Shown here in pieces: positions 7,293-21,346 of a stretch of 46,582 bases of DNA. The DNA comes from Polyangia bacterium (GTDB lineage: Bacteria > Myxococcota_A > Polyangia > Polyangiales > Sandaracinaceae): positions 1 to 46,582 of the forward strand of contig JAUHXR010000029.1 in NCBI GenBank assembly GCA_030426845.1, given 5' to 3'. The first letter of the stretch is position 1. Every line of letters begins with the position of its first letter. The position numbers were made by a program, and so were the translations under genes. Under the pieces are notes generated by a model that was not told the DNA's origin, ran no database searches, and saw only the letters and a program-made list of their open reading frames with translations.

Positions 7293-7457
7293 CGAGGCGT
7301 TGGCTGCGGCTGCGCGGGCTCGGCCCTGCGCGCCTCGGGAGAGCGGGCACGGGCGCGGGCACGGGGAGCTCGGCGCCGCGCGCCTTGCTCACCTGGGCTG
7401 ATCCGCGCGCACGCGTGCCCGACCCCCGACGCCCGCGCTTGGCTGCAGCGACGGCCC

Positions 7458-9833
7458 GTGGTGTGCTGGCCCACGGTGGGTCGACTCCACGTCCTCGGCA
7501 TCCGGCACCACAGCCCGGCCTGCGCCCGGCTGGTGCGACGGGCGCTGTCCCGACACCGGCCGTCGATCGTGCTCGTCGAGGGTCCGGCCGACGCCAACGA
7601 CCGCGTGCCCGAGCTCGGCCTCGCCCACCGGCCGCCGATCGCGATCTTCAGCCACTGGACCGAAGGCCCCGGGGTGAGCGGCGCGAGCTGGACCCCCTTC
7701 GCCGACTTCTCCCCGGAGTGGGTCGCGATCCGCGGCGGGCTGCGGCGCGGCGCGGAGGTGCGCCTGATCGATCTGCCGAGCTGGGCGCTCCCGCCGGGGC
7801 CCTCGCGGCGACCGGGCGCACGCTACCTCGCCCGGCTCGCGCGCGAGCTGGGCGCAGACGGCTACGACGCGCTGTGGGACCACCTCTTCGAGCTCCCGCT
7901 CGCGCCCGACGCGCTCGAGGCGCGCCTCGCCCGCTTCTTCGAGGACCTCCGTCGCGCGGATGCCCACGACCAGCGCGCCCGCGAGGACGGCACCCGCGAG
8001 GACGGCGCCCGCGAGGACGCGACCGAGCCCACACCGCGCGCCCGCGAGGCCTTCATGGCCGGACACGTCGCGGCCGCGATGGCGCGCACCGACGGCCCGG
8101 TGCTCGTCGTGTGCGGCGGGCTCCACGCCCCGGCGTTGATCGACGCCTGGCGCGACCTGCCGGCCGAGCCACCCCCGCTCCCCGCCGGGCCGAGCGCGCG
8201 CGGGAGCTACCTCGTGCCGATCACGTTCGCCCAGCTGGATCGCGACGCGGGCTATCGCGCGGGCGTCCCGTCGCCCGGGTTCTACCAGGCGCTGTGGGAG
8301 CGCGGCCCCGAGGCGGCGGGCGACGCGATGCTCGCCGCGGTCATCGCGCGGCTGCGCGAGGGGCGGCGAGGCCCGAGCACCGCAGACCTCATCGCGGCCC
8401 GCGCGAGCGTCGAGCAGCTGCGGCGCATCCGAGGGCACGTCGCCTTGACGCGCGTGGATGTCCTCGACGGGGTCGCCTCGGCCGTCGTGACGAGGGCGCT
8501 CGACGCGCCGCTGCCCTGGACCGCGGCGCGCGCGGGCGCGGCGCCGACCGACCCCACGGTGCTCGCGATGCTCGACGCGCTGCGCGGCGATCGCGCGGGC
8601 CGCCTCGACCCGAGCACCCCGCGGCCGCCCCTGGTCGACGACGCCCACCGCCAGCTCGCGGCGCGCGACCTCGCGCTCGCCCATGGGCCGCACGAGGTCA
8701 CGCTCGATCTGCGCGCGCCCGCCGACCTCGAGACGAGCCGCGTGCTGCACAGGCTCCGCGTGCTGGAGATCCCGGGCGTCGCGCGTCGGCGCGGCCCCGA
8801 CGGACCGGCCGACGCGGCGGTGACCGAGCGGTGGGAGCTGTGGTCGACCCGCGAGACCGAGCGGCGGCTCGCCGAGGCGGCCGCGTGGGGCCCCGACCTC
8901 GCGCGCGCCGCGGCCGCCCGCCTCGCCCACGCGCTCGATGGCGAGGCGGCCCACCTCGAGGCCCTCGCCGGTCACCTGCTCGACGCGGCCCAGATCGGGA
9001 TCGACGCGCTCGACGAGGCCGCGCTGCGCCGCGCGGAGGGCGTCGCGCGCCGGGAGCCCAGGCTCGCTCGACTCGGCCGTGCGCTCGCCCGAACCCTCGC
9101 GCTCTTCCGGCACGACCGCCTGCTCGGCGCAGCCGGCTCCCCCGCGCTCGCCCGGCTCACGCGCGCGATGATCCGACGCGCGCTCTGGCTCGTCGAGGGG
9201 GCGCGCGGCGCGGAGGCACCGACCGATCGCGACGAGCTGCGCGCGCTGGTCGGGATCCGCGACGGGCTACGCGTCGGCCACGCGCTGGGGATCGCGCCCG
9301 AGGAGGTGATCGACGCGCTCGCCCGGGTAGCCCGCGAGCGGCGGTCGCCGCCGGGGCTGCGCGGCGGCGCGATCGGGCTGCTCTGGTCCGTCAACGCCAC
9401 CGACGACGCGGCCGACGACGCGGCCGACGACGTGGCCGTGGCCAACGACGTGGACGACGACGTGGCCGGCCTCGCCCTCGACGCGCTCGGCGCCGCCTCG
9501 CCGCGCACGATCGGCGAGCTGCTCGCCGGCCTCTTCGCCCTCGCGCGCGCCCGCGTCCTCGCCACGCCGGAGGTGATCGCCATCCTCGACCGTCAGCTCG
9601 CCGCGTGGCCGGAGGACGCGTGGCTCGCCGCGCTCCCCTCCCTGCGCCTCGCGTTCACGTACTTCCCGCCCCGCGAGCGCGACGCGATCGCCCGCGCGGT
9701 GAGCGGGCTCCACGGCCGCGCCGTCGCCCGCGAGCCGCTCCCCGCCGACGCGGCCACGATCGCGCGCGGCGAGGCGAGGGAGGCGCGCGTGGACGCCTGG
9801 GTCGCGCGCTACCACCTCGAGGGGCCCCGGTGA
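7458..9833 (+). CDS. DUF5682-family protein of a MoxR/vWA/SWIM cluster
   Basis: 791 aa from GTG at 7458; an alternative GTG at 7476 starts just before the first conserved strand RLHVLGIRHHSP. I recognise it as DUF5682-like by its opening, its size and its position beside vWA and SWIM genes. The N-terminal ~230 residues hold GIRHHSPACARLV, VLVEGPADAND, REAFMAGHV and VVCGGLHAPAL. This order of His, Glu, Arg/Glu and His motifs resembles the TraB/EreA/ChaN superfamily (inference). The rest looks alpha-helical. Two in-frame repeat expansions occur: three REDGx units at 7980-8024 and an Asp-rich stretch near 9402-9466. Its TGA overlaps the GTG of the vWA gene. Biochemical activity is unknown. Confidence 0.85.
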   Translation: MVCWPTVGRLHVLGIRHHSPACARLVRRALSRHRPSIVLVEGPADANDRVPELGLAHRPPIAIFSHWTEGPGVSGASWTPFADFSPEWVAIRGGLRRGAEVRLIDLPSWALPPGPSRRPGARYLARLARELGADGYDALWDHLFELPLAPDALEARLARFFEDLRRADAHDQRAREDGTREDGAREDATEPTPRAREAFMAGHVAAAMARTDGPVLVVCGGLHAPALIDAWRDLPAEPPPLPAGPSARGSYLVPITFAQLDRDAGYRAGVPSPGFYQALWERGPEAAGDAMLAAVIARLREGRRGPSTADLIAARASVEQLRRIRGHVALTRVDVLDGVASAVVTRALDAPLPWTAARAGAAPTDPTVLAMLDALRGDRAGRLDPSTPRPPLVDDAHRQLAARDLALAHGPHEVTLDLRAPADLETSRVLHRLRVLEIPGVARRRGPDGPADAAVTERWELWSTRETERRLAEAAAWGPDLARAAAARLAHALDGEAAHLEALAGHLLDAAQIGIDALDEAALRRAEGVARREPRLARLGRALARTLALFRHDRLLGAAGSPALARLTRAMIRRALWLVEGARGAEAPTDRDELRALVGIRDGLRVGHALGIAPEEVIDALARVARERRSPPGLRGGAIGLLWSVNATDDAADDAADDVAVANDVDDDVAGLALDALGAASPRTIGELLAGLFALARARVLATPEVIAILDRQLAAWPEDAWLAALPSLRLAFTYFPPRERDAIARAVSGLHGRAVAREPLPADAATIARGEAREARVDAWVARYHLEGPR
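7980..8024. repeat. 15-bp in-frame tandem repeat, 3 units
   Basis: Three consecutive CGCGAGGACGGCRCC-type units inside the DUF5682 gene encode REDGT, REDGA and REDAT. The unit length is divisible by three, so gain or loss keeps the reading frame. It sits in a poorly conserved loop just before the REAFMAGHV motif. Confidence 0.8.
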
Positions 9834-10954
9834 CCGATCCGATCGCGCGGTGGCGGCTCGTGCTCGGTGACGCCGCGAGCGGCGCGCTCGGCCCGTGCGA
9901 GACGGACCGCGCGCGCGACGAGGCGCTCGCGTTCCTCTACGACCGCGAGGAGGCCCCGCTCGACGCGGGCCGCCGCGGCGCGACGCCGACGGAGGGCGCG
10001 ACCGACGACCCGAGCCGGCTCGCCGCGCCGCGCTGGCTCGACGACGTGCACCGGCTCTTCCCGCGGGAGGCCGCGCTCCGCCTCGAGCGCGACGCGGTGG
10101 AGCGCTACGGCCTGCTCTCGCTGCTCGAGGACCCCGACGTCCTCGCGCGCGTCGAGCCGAGCCCGACCCTCCTGCGCGCGGTCCTGCGCACCAAACACCT
10201 GATGCGCCCCGAGCTGCTCGCGGCCGCGCGCGCGCTCACCGCGCGGGTGGTGGAGGAGCTCACGGCGCGGCTGCGCCCCGCGCTGCGCGACGCGCTGGCC
10301 GGGCCCCGCCGCGCCGGGGGCGCGCCGCGGCGGGTCGCGCGGAACCTCGACCTCAAGCGCACCGTCCTGACCAACCTGCGCGGGTACGACCCGGCGACCC
10401 GCCGCCTCGTGATCCGCCGCGCCCGCTTCGTCCGGCGCGCGCGCCGCCTCGGCGAGCGGTGGCAGCTCGTGATCCTCGTCGACCAGAGCGGGAGCATGCT
10501 CGGCTCGACCGTCCACGCGGCGGTCACCGCGGCGTGCCTGCACGGCCTCCCCGCGCTGCGCCGCCACCTCGTGACCTTCGACACCTCCGTGGTCGACCTG
10601 ACCGCGCACGTGGACGACCCGGTCGAGCTCTTGATGCGGGTCGCGCTCGGCGGCGGCACCGACATCGCCCAGGCGCTGCGCTACGGCGCGGGCCTCCTCG
10701 AAGATCCGCGGCGCGCGCTCGTCGTCCTGATCAGCGATCTCTACGAGGGCGGCGACCCCGGCCGGGTGGTGCGCCAGGTCGAGGCGCTCCGCGAGCGCGA
10801 GGCGCGAGTCCTCGTCTTGACCGCGCTCGACGAGGAGGCGACCCCGCGATTCGATCGGGACCTCGCGCGCGCGCTCGTCGACGCGGGGGCCGAGGTGGCG
10901 GCCATGACGCCGGCGCAGCTCACCACCCTCGTCGCCGAGGCGGTGGCGGGGTGA
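9830..10954 (+). CDS. vWA-domain protein (CoxE-like MoxR partner)
   Basis: 374 aa. The GTG start at 9830 overlaps the DUF5682 stop (GTGA). The N-terminal ~205 residues are helical and basic at the end ([16 protein letters not shown]). The vWA domain follows from about residue 212. Its metal-ion adhesion site is intact: DQSGSM at 218-223 (DxSxS), Thr in GGGTDIA near 277, and Asp in [11 protein letters not shown] helical N-terminus plus C-terminal vWA is the usual build of proteins that work with MoxR ATPases, presumably bridging the ATPase to its target through bound Mg. Its stop overlaps the GTG of the SWIM gene, so dosage of the three proteins is likely coupled. Confidence 0.93.
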
Positions 10955-12891
10955 CCGGTCAGGATCGCGAGGACCTGCGCGCGCTCGACGACGACGCGCT
11001 CGCCCGGCTCGCGAGCCCCGGGCTGGTCAAGCGCGCGCGGCGCGAGCGCGCCGAGGCGGAGGCGCGCGTGCGGGTCGAGGCCGGCGCGCTGATCGGCGAG
11101 GTGGGCGCGCACCGGGTGGTGGTGGCCGCCGGGGCGGGGCTCGAGGGCGCGACTTGCACCTGCGGCGCCCGGGCCCTCTGCCGGCACGCGCTGATCGCGG
11201 TGATGGCGCTCCGCGACGCGACGCGCGAGGCCCACGATCCGCCGGACGCCGATCCCGCCTCGGAGGCCGCAGCCCTGCCGCCCGCCGACGCGATCGAGCC
11301 GCGCGTCCTCCGCGAGCACCTCGGCACGCTCACGATGCGCCGCGCGGCCCGAGCCCGCGACGCCGGGCTCGTCGCGACCGTGAGGCGGACCGGCGGGCTG
11401 AGCGTGAGCCTGCCGGCGGCCACCGTGCGCTTCCTCGTGCCCGGCGACCTCGCCTACGCGCGGTGCGACTGCCGCGCCCGGCCGCCCTGCCTCCACCTCG
11501 CGCTCGCGACCTGGTCGCTGGAGGAGGCAAGGCGTATAGCCCCGGACGCGGGGTCGGTCGAGGTCGCCCTCGGCCCGCCGCCCACGGTCGCAGCCGGCGC
11601 GCTGGACGAGGCGCGGGCGCTCGCCGAAGAGCTCCTCCTCGGCGGCGCCGACCACGCGGGCCCCGAGCTCGCGGGGCGCTTCGGCCTGGCCCGGCGCGCG
11701 CTCGAGGACGCGGGCCTCCGCTGGCCGCTCGACGCCTGCGCGGAGCTCGAGCGTGCGCTGAGCGCCTACCACGCCCGCGGGGGCGAGCACCGCGTCGAGG
11801 CGGTCGGCGCGCTCCTCACCGAGCTCCACGCGCGGGGACGCGCAGCTCGCTCGACCGACGGCGCGATCCGGGAGGGAGCGCTCGGGGCGCGCGAGCCGGC
11901 CGAGACCGCGCTCGCCGAGCTCCGGCTCGTCAGCTTGGGCGCGCGGGTGCGGCGCGTGACCGACGAGGACGGCGACGCGCGGGCCGAGGTGGAGGTGTTC
12001 TTCGTGGACCCGGGCGCGCCCGGAGCGTTCGTCTTGCGGCGCGCGTGGCCGGTCTCGCCCGACGAGCGCGGGCCGCAGCTCGCGCGGCGCGCGGCGCTGC
12101 GCGGCGTCACCCTCGGCGCGCTCGCGGCCGGCCAGGTCGTCACCCGGATCGCCCGGCGGCGGGCCGACCGCGGCCTGGAGCTCGGTCCCGGCGCGCGCGG
12201 CGACACCTCGGTCACCCCCCAGCGCGGCGCGTGGGGGACGCTCCACCCCGGCCTCCTGCCGCCGAGCGTCGACGCGGCGCTCGCCGAGCTGCGCGCGCGC
12301 CCGCCGCGCCTCGTGCGGCCGCGCGTCCTGGCCGACGCGGTGCGGGTGATCGCGGTGCGCCGCGTGCGCGACCTCACCTACGACCCGGCGGAGCGCACCC
12401 TCACCGCCGAGCTCGAGGCCGAGTGCGGTGGACACGTCACCTTGACACTCGAGCGCAGGCCCGGTCGCGAAGAGGCGGCCCACGCGGCGGTGGACGCGCT
12501 CCGGCGCGAGCCGCGCTTCGTGAGCGGCGCCGTCCGCCGCGACGGGGCCGCGCTGACGCTCGACCCGCTCGCGATCGTGACCGATCGGGTGGTGGTGCTC
12601 GACCTCGAGCCCGCCGGCGACGCCCGGCTCCCGGCCCGCGCCGCGCCGCGCCCGGCCGATCCGATCGAGGCCGCGCTCCGCGACGCGCGGCGCGCGCTCG
12701 ACGACGCGGCCCACCACGGCCTCCGTCACCTGTCCCCCGCGTGGCGAGACGGCGCGGGCGCGATCGCCGACCGCCTCGCCGACCTCGGGCTGGCCACCAC
12801 CGCGGCCCGCCTCCGCGCGGTGGGCGCCGCCCGCTCCGCCGAGGCGTGGCTCGAGGCCTCGACCCGGATCCGGCTCGCCCTCGAGGCGTGA
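10951..12891 (+). CDS. Twin SWIM zinc-finger protein
   Basis: 646 aa from GTG at 10951, overlapping the vWA stop. Two complete SWIM motifs of identical spacing (CxCx5CxH) are present: C69/C71/C77/H79 in [13 protein letters not shown] and C172/C174/C180/H182 in [18 protein letters not shown] fingers are zinc modules linked to DNA or protein binding. The remaining ~460 residues are helical with some beta stretches, and I could not assign a fold. In other bacteria SWIM proteins sit in the same neighbourhood as DUF5682, vWA and MoxR genes (from memory), so it is probably a structural or targeting subunit of that assembly. The gene ends just before the 42-bp repeat array. Confidence 0.9.
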
Positions 12892-12923
12892 GCTCCGCTC
12901 GGCGGGGCCCGGCCCGGCGGTCT

Positions 12924-13113
12924 GCGCGGGGGTCTCGGCGCTCGCAAATCTGCTCCCGGCGCCTCGCGCGGGGGTCTCGGCGCTCGCAAATCTGCTCCCG
13001 GCGCCTCGGGCGGGGGTCTCGGCGCTCGCAAATCTGCTCCCGGCGCCCCGCGCGGGGGTCTCGGCGCTCGCAAATCTGCTCCCGACGCCCCGCGCGGGGG
13101 TCTCGGCGCTCGC
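12924..13113. repeat. 42-bp tandem repeat, about 4.5 units
   Basis: Units start at 12924, 12966, 13008, 13050 and 13092, exactly 42 bp apart. Each begins GCGCGGGGGTCTCGGCGCTC and carries the less GC-rich core GCAAATCTGCTCCCG. The last unit breaks off after CGCTCGC. Copies differ at only a few positions. There are no unique spacers, so it is a minisatellite and not a CRISPR array. It lies 32 bp after the SWIM stop, where it could affect transcript ends or bind a protein; neither is shown. Confidence 0.95.
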
Positions 13114-13502
13114 CGAGCGGGTCTGCCTCGGTCCAACCGAGCCTCTCGGCGACGCACCCGAGGCTTCGCGGCAGGCATCCCGAGCCTCGAGCGTCGCGCC
13201 CGACGGCCAGGAGAGTCGCGCCCGGGGCCTCCCCGCTCGGACCCCGCGGCCCGACGAGCGCGCCTTCGACTCGGGCGCGCGCGTCCTCGGCTCGAGGGAC
13301 TGGCGTCCCTCGCGAAGAGATTCACGCCCTTCGCTTCGAGCTTCACGCCCTCGGCTTCAGAGCTCGATGTTCCAACTCGGGTGCGTCGCCGAGTCGACCG
13401 GGTGCGTGGTCGGGAGCCGAGGGCGTGGGTTCCGCGAGGCCCGGGCGAGAGCTTCGGCGGGAGTGCAGCTCGTCGTGGACGTTGCGGGCGGAGTCGGAAC
13501 CC

Positions 13503-13622
<120 letters not shown>

Positions 13623-13693
13623 TCGGTCTCACTGGCCATGATCAAGCGAGCGCTCGGCTGCGTGGCTGGGTCAGGTCACGCGGGTCCCCGGGT

Positions 13694-13751
13694 GCGCCTT
13701 CGTCTGCGGAGCGCAAGCAAACTGCGGCTTGCGCACCGCAGACGAAGGCGC
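13694..13751. promoter_or_regulatory. 25-bp-arm inverted repeat just upstream of the four-helix-bundle gene
   Basis: Left arm 13694-13718 (GCGCCTTCGTCTGCGG, one mismatch, GCGCAAGC) pairs with right arm 13727-13751 across an 8-nt loop (AAACTGCG). Only one of 25 positions is unpaired. The structure ends 11 nt before the ATG at 13763, so in RNA it would sit against the ribosome-binding region. A terminator is less likely, because no U-run follows and a gene begins at once. Translational control of the gene, or a processing/recognition hairpin of a mobile element, are both possible. Confidence 0.75.
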
Positions 13752-13762
13752 GGGGGGACGGC

Positions 13763-14113
13763 ATGACCCAACCCTTCCACTCCACCGCGCTCTCGCTCTA
13801 CATGGAGGTCCTTCCGCGGCTCGCTGCCGCTGGTCGGACGATCCGGGGCGCGAGCCGCAATCTCTCCTCCCAACTGAATCGCGCCGCACAGTCGGTCGCC
13901 GCCAACCTCGCCGAGGCCGCCACGCCCTGTGCGGGAAACTCGCGGAGCCGACTGGAGACCGCCTACGGATCACTCCGCGAGGTGCGCACCCACCTGCGGG
14001 TGGCCTGCATCTACGGATACCTCGAAGCCGACGAGGCCGCGGCGATCGACGCCGTCCTCGACCGGGTCGGCGCGATGACCTGGCGGCGCATCCAGAAGCG
14101 GCAGCGACGATGA
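13763..14113 (+). CDS. Four-helix-bundle protein (S23/IVP family)
   Basis: 116 aa from ATG at 13763. The pattern [16 protein letters not shown], then [20 protein letters not shown], then [20 protein letters not shown], then [20 protein letters not shown] matches the S23-like four-helix-bundle family, first known from intervening sequences in 23S rRNA and related to the Avd proteins of diversity-generating retroelements. No rRNA or reverse transcriptase is nearby. Many codons end in A or T (CAA, GCT, AAT, GGA, TCA), unlike the surrounding genes, which points to separate ancestry. A strong hairpin precedes it, hexanucleotide arrays lie on both sides, and its TGA overlaps an ATG. Such proteins form pentamers that bind nucleic acid; a function here is unknown. 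Confidence 0.88.
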
Positions 14114-14391
14114 CCAAGCCCGCCGGGGCCGACCCGTCGACCCCGGCGCAAACACCAGCCTCGGGACGCCGAGCGCCACACGTGCACGTGCTCGTACACG
14201 TCCTCGTGGACGTGCACGTACTCTTGCTCGTCTACGAGCACAGCCGGAGCAGGAGCCGGAGCAGGAGCCGGAGCAGGAGCCGGAGCCGGGGCCGGAGCCG
14301 GAGCCGGAGCCGCCGTACGAACGCCACCTACCTTGTCGCGGACTCGCGCCCTCGAGCGACACCTGCGCGAGCCTCTCTCTCCCTCACATGA
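14110..14391 (+). CDS. Possible coupled RS-rich small protein
   Basis: The ATG at 14110 overlaps the stop of the four-helix-bundle gene (ATGA), the junction style used for real genes throughout this window. It would encode 93 aa: a Pro/Ala-rich start, a run of alternating His/Val/Leu (HVHVLVHVLVDVHVLLLVYEH split over 14178-14240), then an Arg-Ser repeat produced by the hexanucleotide array, and a short tail. The residue pattern follows from repetitive DNA, so the ORF may be accidental. The start overlap is the only positive evidence. No homologous family is recognised. Confidence 0.25.
   Translation: MTKPAGADPSTPAQTPASGRRAPHVHVLVHVLVDVHVLLLVYEHSRSRSRSRSRSRSRSRGRSRSRSRRTNATYLVADSRPRATPARASLSLT
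14178..14240. repeat. CACGTG-rich dyad segment preceding a hexamer array
   Basis: The segment is built from CACGTG, GTGCAC and CTCGT words and has a central dyad (CACGTCC, loop TCGT, GGACGTG). The words CACGTGCTCGT (14185-14195) and CTTGCTCG (14223-14230) recur in the same order at 21266-21276 and 21292-21299, where they also directly precede a hexanucleotide array. Confidence 0.7.
14242..14312. repeat. Imperfect hexanucleotide array (GAGCAG/GAGCCG)
   Basis: About twelve 6-bp units. The first part alternates GAGCCG and GAGCAG, and the end is GAGCCG only with one GGGCCG variant. It is a diverged relative of the perfect array at 13503-13622 and lies in the gap leading to a convergently oriented gene. 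Confidence 0.93.
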
Positions 14392-14733: not shown

Positions 14734-14770
14734 CCCTGGGAGACAAGCAGCAGGCCAAACAGACCCGCCG

Positions 14771-14824
14771 GAGCCGAAGCCGAAGCCGAAGCCGAAGCCG
14801 AAGCCGAAGCCGAAGCCGAAGCCG
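14771..14824. repeat. Hexanucleotide array (GAGCCG)(AAGCCG)x8
   Basis: Nine 6-bp units, 54 bp, ending 8 bp before the stop codon of the minus-strand membrane protein at 14833. The unit differs by one base from the arrays at 13503 and 14242. Confidence 0.95.
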
Positions 14825-21265: not shown

Positions 21266-21299
21266 CACGTGCTCGTGCATGCGCACGCAAACTTGCTCG
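21266..21299. repeat. CACGTGCTCGT...CTTGCTCG motif before a hexamer array
   Basis: The words CACGTGCTCGT (21266-21276) and CTTGCTCG (21292-21299) repeat the pair seen at 14185-14230 in the same order and again lead straight into a GC hexanucleotide array. The segment between contains GTGCATGCGCAC, a dyad. It sits between two convergent genes. Confidence 0.65.
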
Positions 21300-21346
21300 A
21301 CCCGGACCCGGACCCGGACCCGGACCCGGACCCGGACCCGGACCCG
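21299..21346. repeat. Perfect hexanucleotide array (GACCCG)x8
   Basis: Eight uninterrupted GACCCG units between the convergent kinase (ends 21239) and PilZ-Hsp70 (ends 21366) genes. The unit differs by one base from GAGCCG at 13503-13622. Confidence 0.96.

What the first reader, a model, noticed from the sequence alone, without database searches (positions are those of the whole stretch)
13694..13751. 25-bp-arm hairpin set against the start of a four-helix-bundle gene
One mismatch in 25 pairs and an 8-nt loop, ending 11 nt before the ATG. Such a stem would block or gate translation, or mark a processing site. S23 relatives are known from stem-bounded rRNA intervening sequences, so a protein-RNA hairpin unit is a plausible reading.
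Basis: partly seen in the sequence, partly recalled or inferred. Interest (0 to 1): 0.62.

Follow-up and report, generated by a model that had tools for sequence, protein, structure and literature searches.

The report
Hairpin of a multicopy S23-gene element
The hairpin is real and belongs to a small DNA element, present in six copies in this bacterium, that carries a gene for an S23-type four-helix-bundle protein; relatives sit between arrays of 6-8-base repeats in many bacteria, which may show how S23 genes and such repeats spread.

Summary
Confirmed: 13694-13751 holds a 25-bp stem (one mismatch, 8-nt loop) ending 11 nt before the ATG of a PF05635/TIGR02436 gene (13763-14113). No shuffled window gave its equal. 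It is not a lone feature. Hairpin, gene and tail form a ~0.5-kb unit present in six dispersed copies in this genome (84-91% DNA identity). Mid-stem bases differ between copies with compensatory changes, and the proteins are under purifying selection (dN/dS 0.16). In other Myxococcota, related elements carry one gene, or two convergent ones, each led by a hairpin; in one genus and a neighbour the 3' arm holds the Shine-Dalgarno or start codon. Of 66 loci, 56 lie beside hexanucleotide arrays (1.3% of random points). Plasmid S23 genes in cyanobacteria, Gemmatimonadota and Azospirillum are likewise enclosed by heptamer or octamer arrays, usually inverted. One locus shows presence/absence between sister species. 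My reading: a mobile-type relative of the 23S rRNA intervening sequence, living outside rRNA, whose hairpin silences translation from read-through transcripts and is probably the protein's cis site. RT and Y1 transposase are each absent from several carrier genomes. Mobility, binding and gating are inferred. The S23/short-repeat link appears undescribed.

The parts
13489..13622 (.). left hexanucleotide array (CGGAGC/GAGCCG, 22 copies)
   Evidence: Tandem Repeats Finder; the same kind of array flanks the other copies
13623..13693 (+). conserved leader of the repeated element between array and hairpin
   Evidence: aligns in the copies C23, C225, C45, C261, C150 and C335
13694..13751 (+). hairpin: 25-bp stem, 8-nt loop; mid-stem covaries between copies
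13674..13768 (+). extended stem around the hairpin; pairs a G-rich possible ribosome-binding stretch (13752-13759) and part of the start codon
   Evidence: RNA fold; pair counts
13763..14113 (+). 116-aa S23/23S_rRNA_IVP-family four-helix-bundle protein
   Evidence: AlphaFold2 pLDDT 92.5; closest fold 2GSC, TM 0.83; dN/dS 0.16 among six copies
14114..14235 (+). conserved tail of the element, including a degenerate CACGTN hexamer stretch (14178-14231)
   Evidence: alignment of six copies; tandem repeats
14242..14312 (.). right hexanucleotide array (AGCCGG, 12 copies)

Best explanation
The hairpin is the 5' structural part of a small, dispersed, selfish-type element that encodes one S23/IVP-family four-helix-bundle protein (two convergent ones in many relatives, each with its own hairpin) and sits within short tandem-repeat arrays. 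Shown: a multicopy unit; a hairpin kept by compensatory change; a protein under purifying selection; recurrence in many Myxococcota; association with 6-mer arrays (7- or 8-mers elsewhere); presence/absence at a syntenic site. Inferred: the stem hides the ribosome-binding site or start codon in transcripts that read in from outside, so the protein is made only from transcripts starting inside the hairpin or after the stem is opened. Also inferred: the same structure is the cis site that the (probably pentameric) protein recognises when the element is copied or moved, with host enzymes supplying the catalysis.
For: Six copies with hairpin and gene. Five stem pairs changed on both sides among the copies, 0-1 of 500 shuffles as high on three of the measures; 13 such pairs in the gene-B hairpins of one genus. 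Upstream fold z below -4 for 48 of 97 S23 genes against 0 of 97 windows inside the genes. In the 34 strong hairpins of genus g9 and G035, 31 have the Shine-Dalgarno in or overlapping the 3' arm. In a second set of public contigs, found by similarity to the two-gene proteins, 50 of 63 scored starts have a hairpin (my count). dN/dS 0.05-0.16. Arrays beside 56 of 66 loci against 1.3% of random points. Sister species G050, G047 and G040 have adjoining convergent genes where G012 carries an insert of about 1 kb.
Against: No movement or expression was observed. Hairpins are weak or missing in several lineages (G006/G001, G030, G016, G002), so the hairpin is not universal. Wobble pairs are rare on the mRNA strand (2 G.U against about 13 independent A.C), which argues for a DNA-level or antisense role, or for arm-to-arm copying, rather than mRNA gating alone. 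In this window no classical Shine-Dalgarno sits inside the 25-bp stem; a G-rich stretch in the extended stem is the candidate. Copies within one genome differ by dS of about 0.33-0.64, so movement is not recent.
Confidence: 0.6

Rival explanations
1. Only the arrays move or recombine: the S23 unit is a passenger cassette exchanged between hexamer arrays by homologous recombination, and the hairpin is merely a regulatory leader of a host-useful protein.
For: Arrays exist without the S23 unit. At the L071 site G020 holds a different array-bounded insert. Strong purifying selection would also fit host benefit.
Against: Units of very different sequence carry the same arrangement in many lineages, and S23 genes also lie between unrelated neighbours in cyanobacterial plasmids, which looks like a moving gene.
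Confidence: 0.3
2. A retroelement moved by a reverse transcriptase in trans, with the S23 protein acting as Avd does in diversity-generating retroelements.
For: The predicted fold matches Avd (4DWL, TM about 0.8) and Avd in the DGR RNP (8UB7); the window genome has one RT.
Against: RVT_1 is absent from G011, G030, G035, G040, G047 and G050, all multicopy carriers.
Confidence: 0.08
3. A single-strand transposon moved by a Y1/HUH transposase in trans, with the hairpins as recognition ends, as for REPINs.
For: Hairpins at both ends in inverted orientation in the two-gene form; mismatch bias suggests a DNA or antisense role.
Against: No Y1_Tnp match in G000, G001, G006, G011, G012 or G043.
Confidence: 0.07
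4. The hairpin is a mutational by-product (arms kept identical by template switching) with no function.
For: Almost all stem pairs are Watson-Crick; in copy C261 a stem block looks like the complement of that in C225.
Against: Fixed distance to the start codon in distant lineages, Shine-Dalgarno in the arm, and no comparable hairpins inside the genes.
Confidence: 0.07

Closest known systems
Intervening sequences (IVS) of 23S rRNA with an S23 ORF (Coxiella, Leptospira; PMC4990558)
   Same: PF05635/S23 protein, small stem-forming element, possibly mobile; the Coxiella IVS has heptameric repeats just upstream of the S23 start codon.
   Different: Not in rRNA here; multicopy; the hairpin precedes the gene instead of enclosing it; hexamer arrays; often two convergent S23 genes.
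Avd of diversity-generating retroelements (4DWL, 8UB7)
   Same: Same fold (TM about 0.8).
   Different: No adjacent RT or template/variable repeats were found; RT absent from several carrier genomes.
Xcc0516 (2GSC) and BT_0352 (2RLD), solved S23-family proteins
   Same: Fold, TM 0.80-0.83; sequence match to 2GSC, E 2e-5.
   Different: Function unknown; their surroundings were not examined here.
IS10/IS200-type hairpins that block transposase translation from outside transcripts (own knowledge, not looked up)
   Same: A hairpin over the ribosome-binding site at the start of an element's gene.
   Different: The gene product here is not a known transposase.
Heptamer repeat arrays of cyanobacteria, Xanthomonas and Beggiatoaceae (PMC4692102, PMC4679880)
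   Same: Short tandem arrays of unknown origin; similar heptamer arrays lie within 250 bp of plasmid S23 genes.
   Different: Those papers do not mention S23 or four-helix-bundle proteins.

Membership tests
PF05635 / TIGR02436 (S23, four helix bundle protein) | score above the curated profile cut-off | tested here: met
   50.0 bits against 33.8; 50.1 against 24
PF05635 / TIGR02436 (S23, four helix bundle protein) | four-helix-bundle fold | tested here: met
   Predicted four helices, pLDDT 92.5; 2GSC TM 0.83
PF05635 / TIGR02436 (S23, four helix bundle protein) | homopentamer as in 2GSC | not tested
   Only a monomer was predicted
23S rRNA intervening sequence | located inside a 23S rRNA gene | tested here: not met
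   Intergenic between hexamer arrays in the window; no rRNA match around it in Rfam
23S rRNA intervening sequence | terminal complementary arms enclosing the ORF | tested here: not met
   The stem closes before the gene; in cyanobacterial plasmids inverted heptamer arrays do enclose the gene
23S rRNA intervening sequence | excision by RNase III | not testable with these tools
   Needs RNA data
Diversity-generating retroelement (Avd) | reverse transcriptase in the locus or genome | tested here: not met
   RVT_1 absent from six carrier genomes; one RT in the window genome, on another contig than any copy
IS200/IS605 or REPIN (Y1 transposase) | Y1_Tnp in the genome | tested here: not met
   No match in G000, G001, G006, G011, G012, G043
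Transposable element (general) | multicopy and dispersed | tested here: met
   Six copies on different contigs; many copies in relatives
Transposable element (general) | presence/absence at a syntenic site | tested here: met
   L071 site: insert in G012, adjoining convergent stop codons in G050, G047, G040; G020 holds a different array-bounded insert
Transposable element (general) | defined ends with target-site duplication | tested here: inconclusive
   TAG/CTAG on both sides at one site; ends hard to place inside repeats

The most novel reading that the evidence does not exclude
S23-family four-helix-bundle proteins are the agents behind the dispersed 6-8-nt tandem-repeat arrays of bacteria: they make, keep or use these arrays as homing sites, and S23 genes spread as transposase-free, RT-free cassettes bounded by hairpins or by inverted repeat arrays. 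The 23S rRNA intervening sequences would be the special case in rRNA.
Probability: 0.3. Interest if true: 0.92.

Novelty: new variant of a known kind. Interest (0 to 1): 0.72.

Why it matters
The function of S23 proteins, the way rRNA intervening sequences spread, and the origin of dispersed 6-8-nt repeat arrays are all open questions. A recurring unit of S23 gene, hairpin and short tandem array outside rRNA ties the three together and offers a protein-plus-DNA pair that can be tested in the laboratory. If the element moves without a transposase or reverse transcriptase, it would be a new way for a gene to spread.

Tried and rejected
Rfam: only sub-threshold microRNA models over the palindrome, taken as chance. 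RT in trans and Y1 transposase in trans: disfavoured by absence from carrier genomes. Pure target-site model for the arrays: weakened because at the L071 site the outgroups have no array at all. Pure array-by-product model: weakened because G020 has many arrays but no S23 match. Window protein in plasmids and phages: no match. A genome-contig scan with the window family alone found no relatives. One global alignment over the L070 site forced a misalignment across the insert; only its two ends were used. PADLOC: nothing meaningful. Four alignment or scan calls failed on input.

Full report
Observation. It scores 21 under the scoring used, against a best of 16 in 60 dinucleotide shuffles of the window; the fold z is -9.7. 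The stem continues downwards and pairs a G-rich stretch and part of the start codon. The gene product is PF05635/TIGR02436, predicted as a four-helix bundle (pLDDT 92.5) closest to Xcc0516 (2GSC, TM 0.83), then BT_0352 and Avd.

It is a multicopy unit. The window's own genome holds six copies at 84-91% DNA identity covering leader, hairpin, gene and tail; two contigs end inside the hairpin and probably form one of the six. Aligned, the copies share a leader of about 70 nt, the hairpin, the gene and a CACGT-rich tail. In the stem, five pairs are changed on both sides and 99.5% of cells stay paired; 0-1 of 500 shuffles reach the number of double changes or the covariation score. Among copies in one genome dN/dS is 0.05-0.16 with dS 0.33-0.64: old copies under selection on the protein.

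Relatives. Of 56 genomes of the same family or order, 24 have matches, many of them multicopy. In G012 (matching public record JAOTYL01, Myxococcales bacterium isolate 21_Jan_SF_Bin46) the element has two convergent S23 genes with a hairpin before each. Over 97 S23 genes, 48 upstream windows have z below -4 against 0 of 97 windows inside the genes. It depends on lineage: strong in G000, G012, G035, G040, G047, G050, G011 and part of G005/G008; weak in G006/G001, G030, G016 and G002. In the 34 strong hairpins of genus g9 and G035, 31 have the Shine-Dalgarno in or overlapping the 3' arm, and the 5' arm carries its complement, often at its start (CTCCTT). The gene-B hairpins of that genus have 13 doubly changed pairs. 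In a second set, public contigs found with the two-gene proteins, 50 of 63 scored starts have such a hairpin by my count; that set is biased to this subfamily.

Strand of action. In 39 distinct stems 979 pairs are Watson-Crick; the mismatches, merged by hand into independent events, are about 13 A.C against 2 G.U on the mRNA strand. Selection on an mRNA hairpin alone should favour G.U. So a DNA-level or antisense role, or arm-to-arm copying, must be kept open. The numbers are small.

Short tandem arrays. Period-6 arrays lie within 700 bp of 56 of 66 element loci with room on both sides, against 1.3% of random points in 400 kb of random DNA from four of the genomes. Units differ between genomes and between element subfamilies. 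Arrays also occur without the element, and G020 has arrays but no S23 match. In 56 Myxococcota groups with arrays on both sides, 41 are direct and 9 inverted.

Outside Myxococcota. As a control I took S23 genes from plasmids, mostly cyanobacterial. They lack the local hairpin, but 14 of 18 have a period 7 or 8 array within 250 bp, about half of them on both sides, against 8 of 109 control ORFs in the same plasmids. Where both sides could be compared the arrays are inverted in 8 of 11, so the gene sits in the loop of a long stem, for example in Nostoc edaphicum pNe_5 between two ribonucleotide-reductase genes. Two of the loci are not cyanobacterial: Gemmatirosa (octamers) and Azospirillum. The Coxiella IVS also has heptamers before its S23 start (PMC4990558).

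Mobility. At the L071 site, G050, G047 and G040 have two convergent genes with adjoining or overlapping stop codons; G012 has about 1 kb of array, S23 pair and array between them, with TAG on both sides; G020 has a different array-bounded insert at the same place. The L070 site also differs between G012 and G020. This is presence/absence, not observed movement, and one clean site. RVT_1 is absent from six multicopy carriers and Y1_Tnp from six genomes including G000 and G012. These are mostly MAGs, so absence is not proof.

Mechanism. Most likely, the hairpin silences the gene in transcripts entering from outside and serves as the cis site of the S23 protein, with host enzymes doing the chemistry. 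Gating I put near 0.5, a cis-site role near 0.4; that hairpin and gene form one conserved multicopy unit near 0.93.

Literature. Searches of the open-access library found no paper joining S23 or four-helix-bundle genes with short tandem arrays or describing these elements. Two repeat papers do not mention S23; one of them suggests that a repeat-binding protein might itself be the mobile element (PMC4679880). S23-family genes in cas loci were noted before (PMC3936711). Most subscription papers and all bioRxiv preprints are missing from that library.

Noticed in passing
L327, L325, L340 (cyanobacterial plasmids): S23 genes lie between cas6 and cas4 of type I-D loci and between cas10 and cmr3 of a type III-B locus, as if inserted into cas operons.
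   Followed up: partly
L070 436-609 and 1201-1383: Two further dispersed non-coding repeats of about 170-180 bp in G012 abut hexamer arrays, with many copies without the S23 genes.
   Followed up: partly
window 12913-13113: About five copies of a 42-bp tandem repeat upstream of the element.
   Followed up: no
window 14767-14824 and 21299-21346: Two more hexamer arrays (GCCGAA, GACCCG) in the window without an S23 gene directly beside them.
   Followed up: no
L037 (G000:C460): A seventh, divergent S23-family gene in the window's genome (31% identity), single copy.
   Followed up: no
L150 (G000:C520): The only RVT_1 reverse transcriptase found in the genome; its type was not determined.
   Followed up: no
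window 9895-12891: SWIM zinc-finger protein next to a VWA CoxE-like protein (7385-10954), upstream of the element.
   Followed up: no
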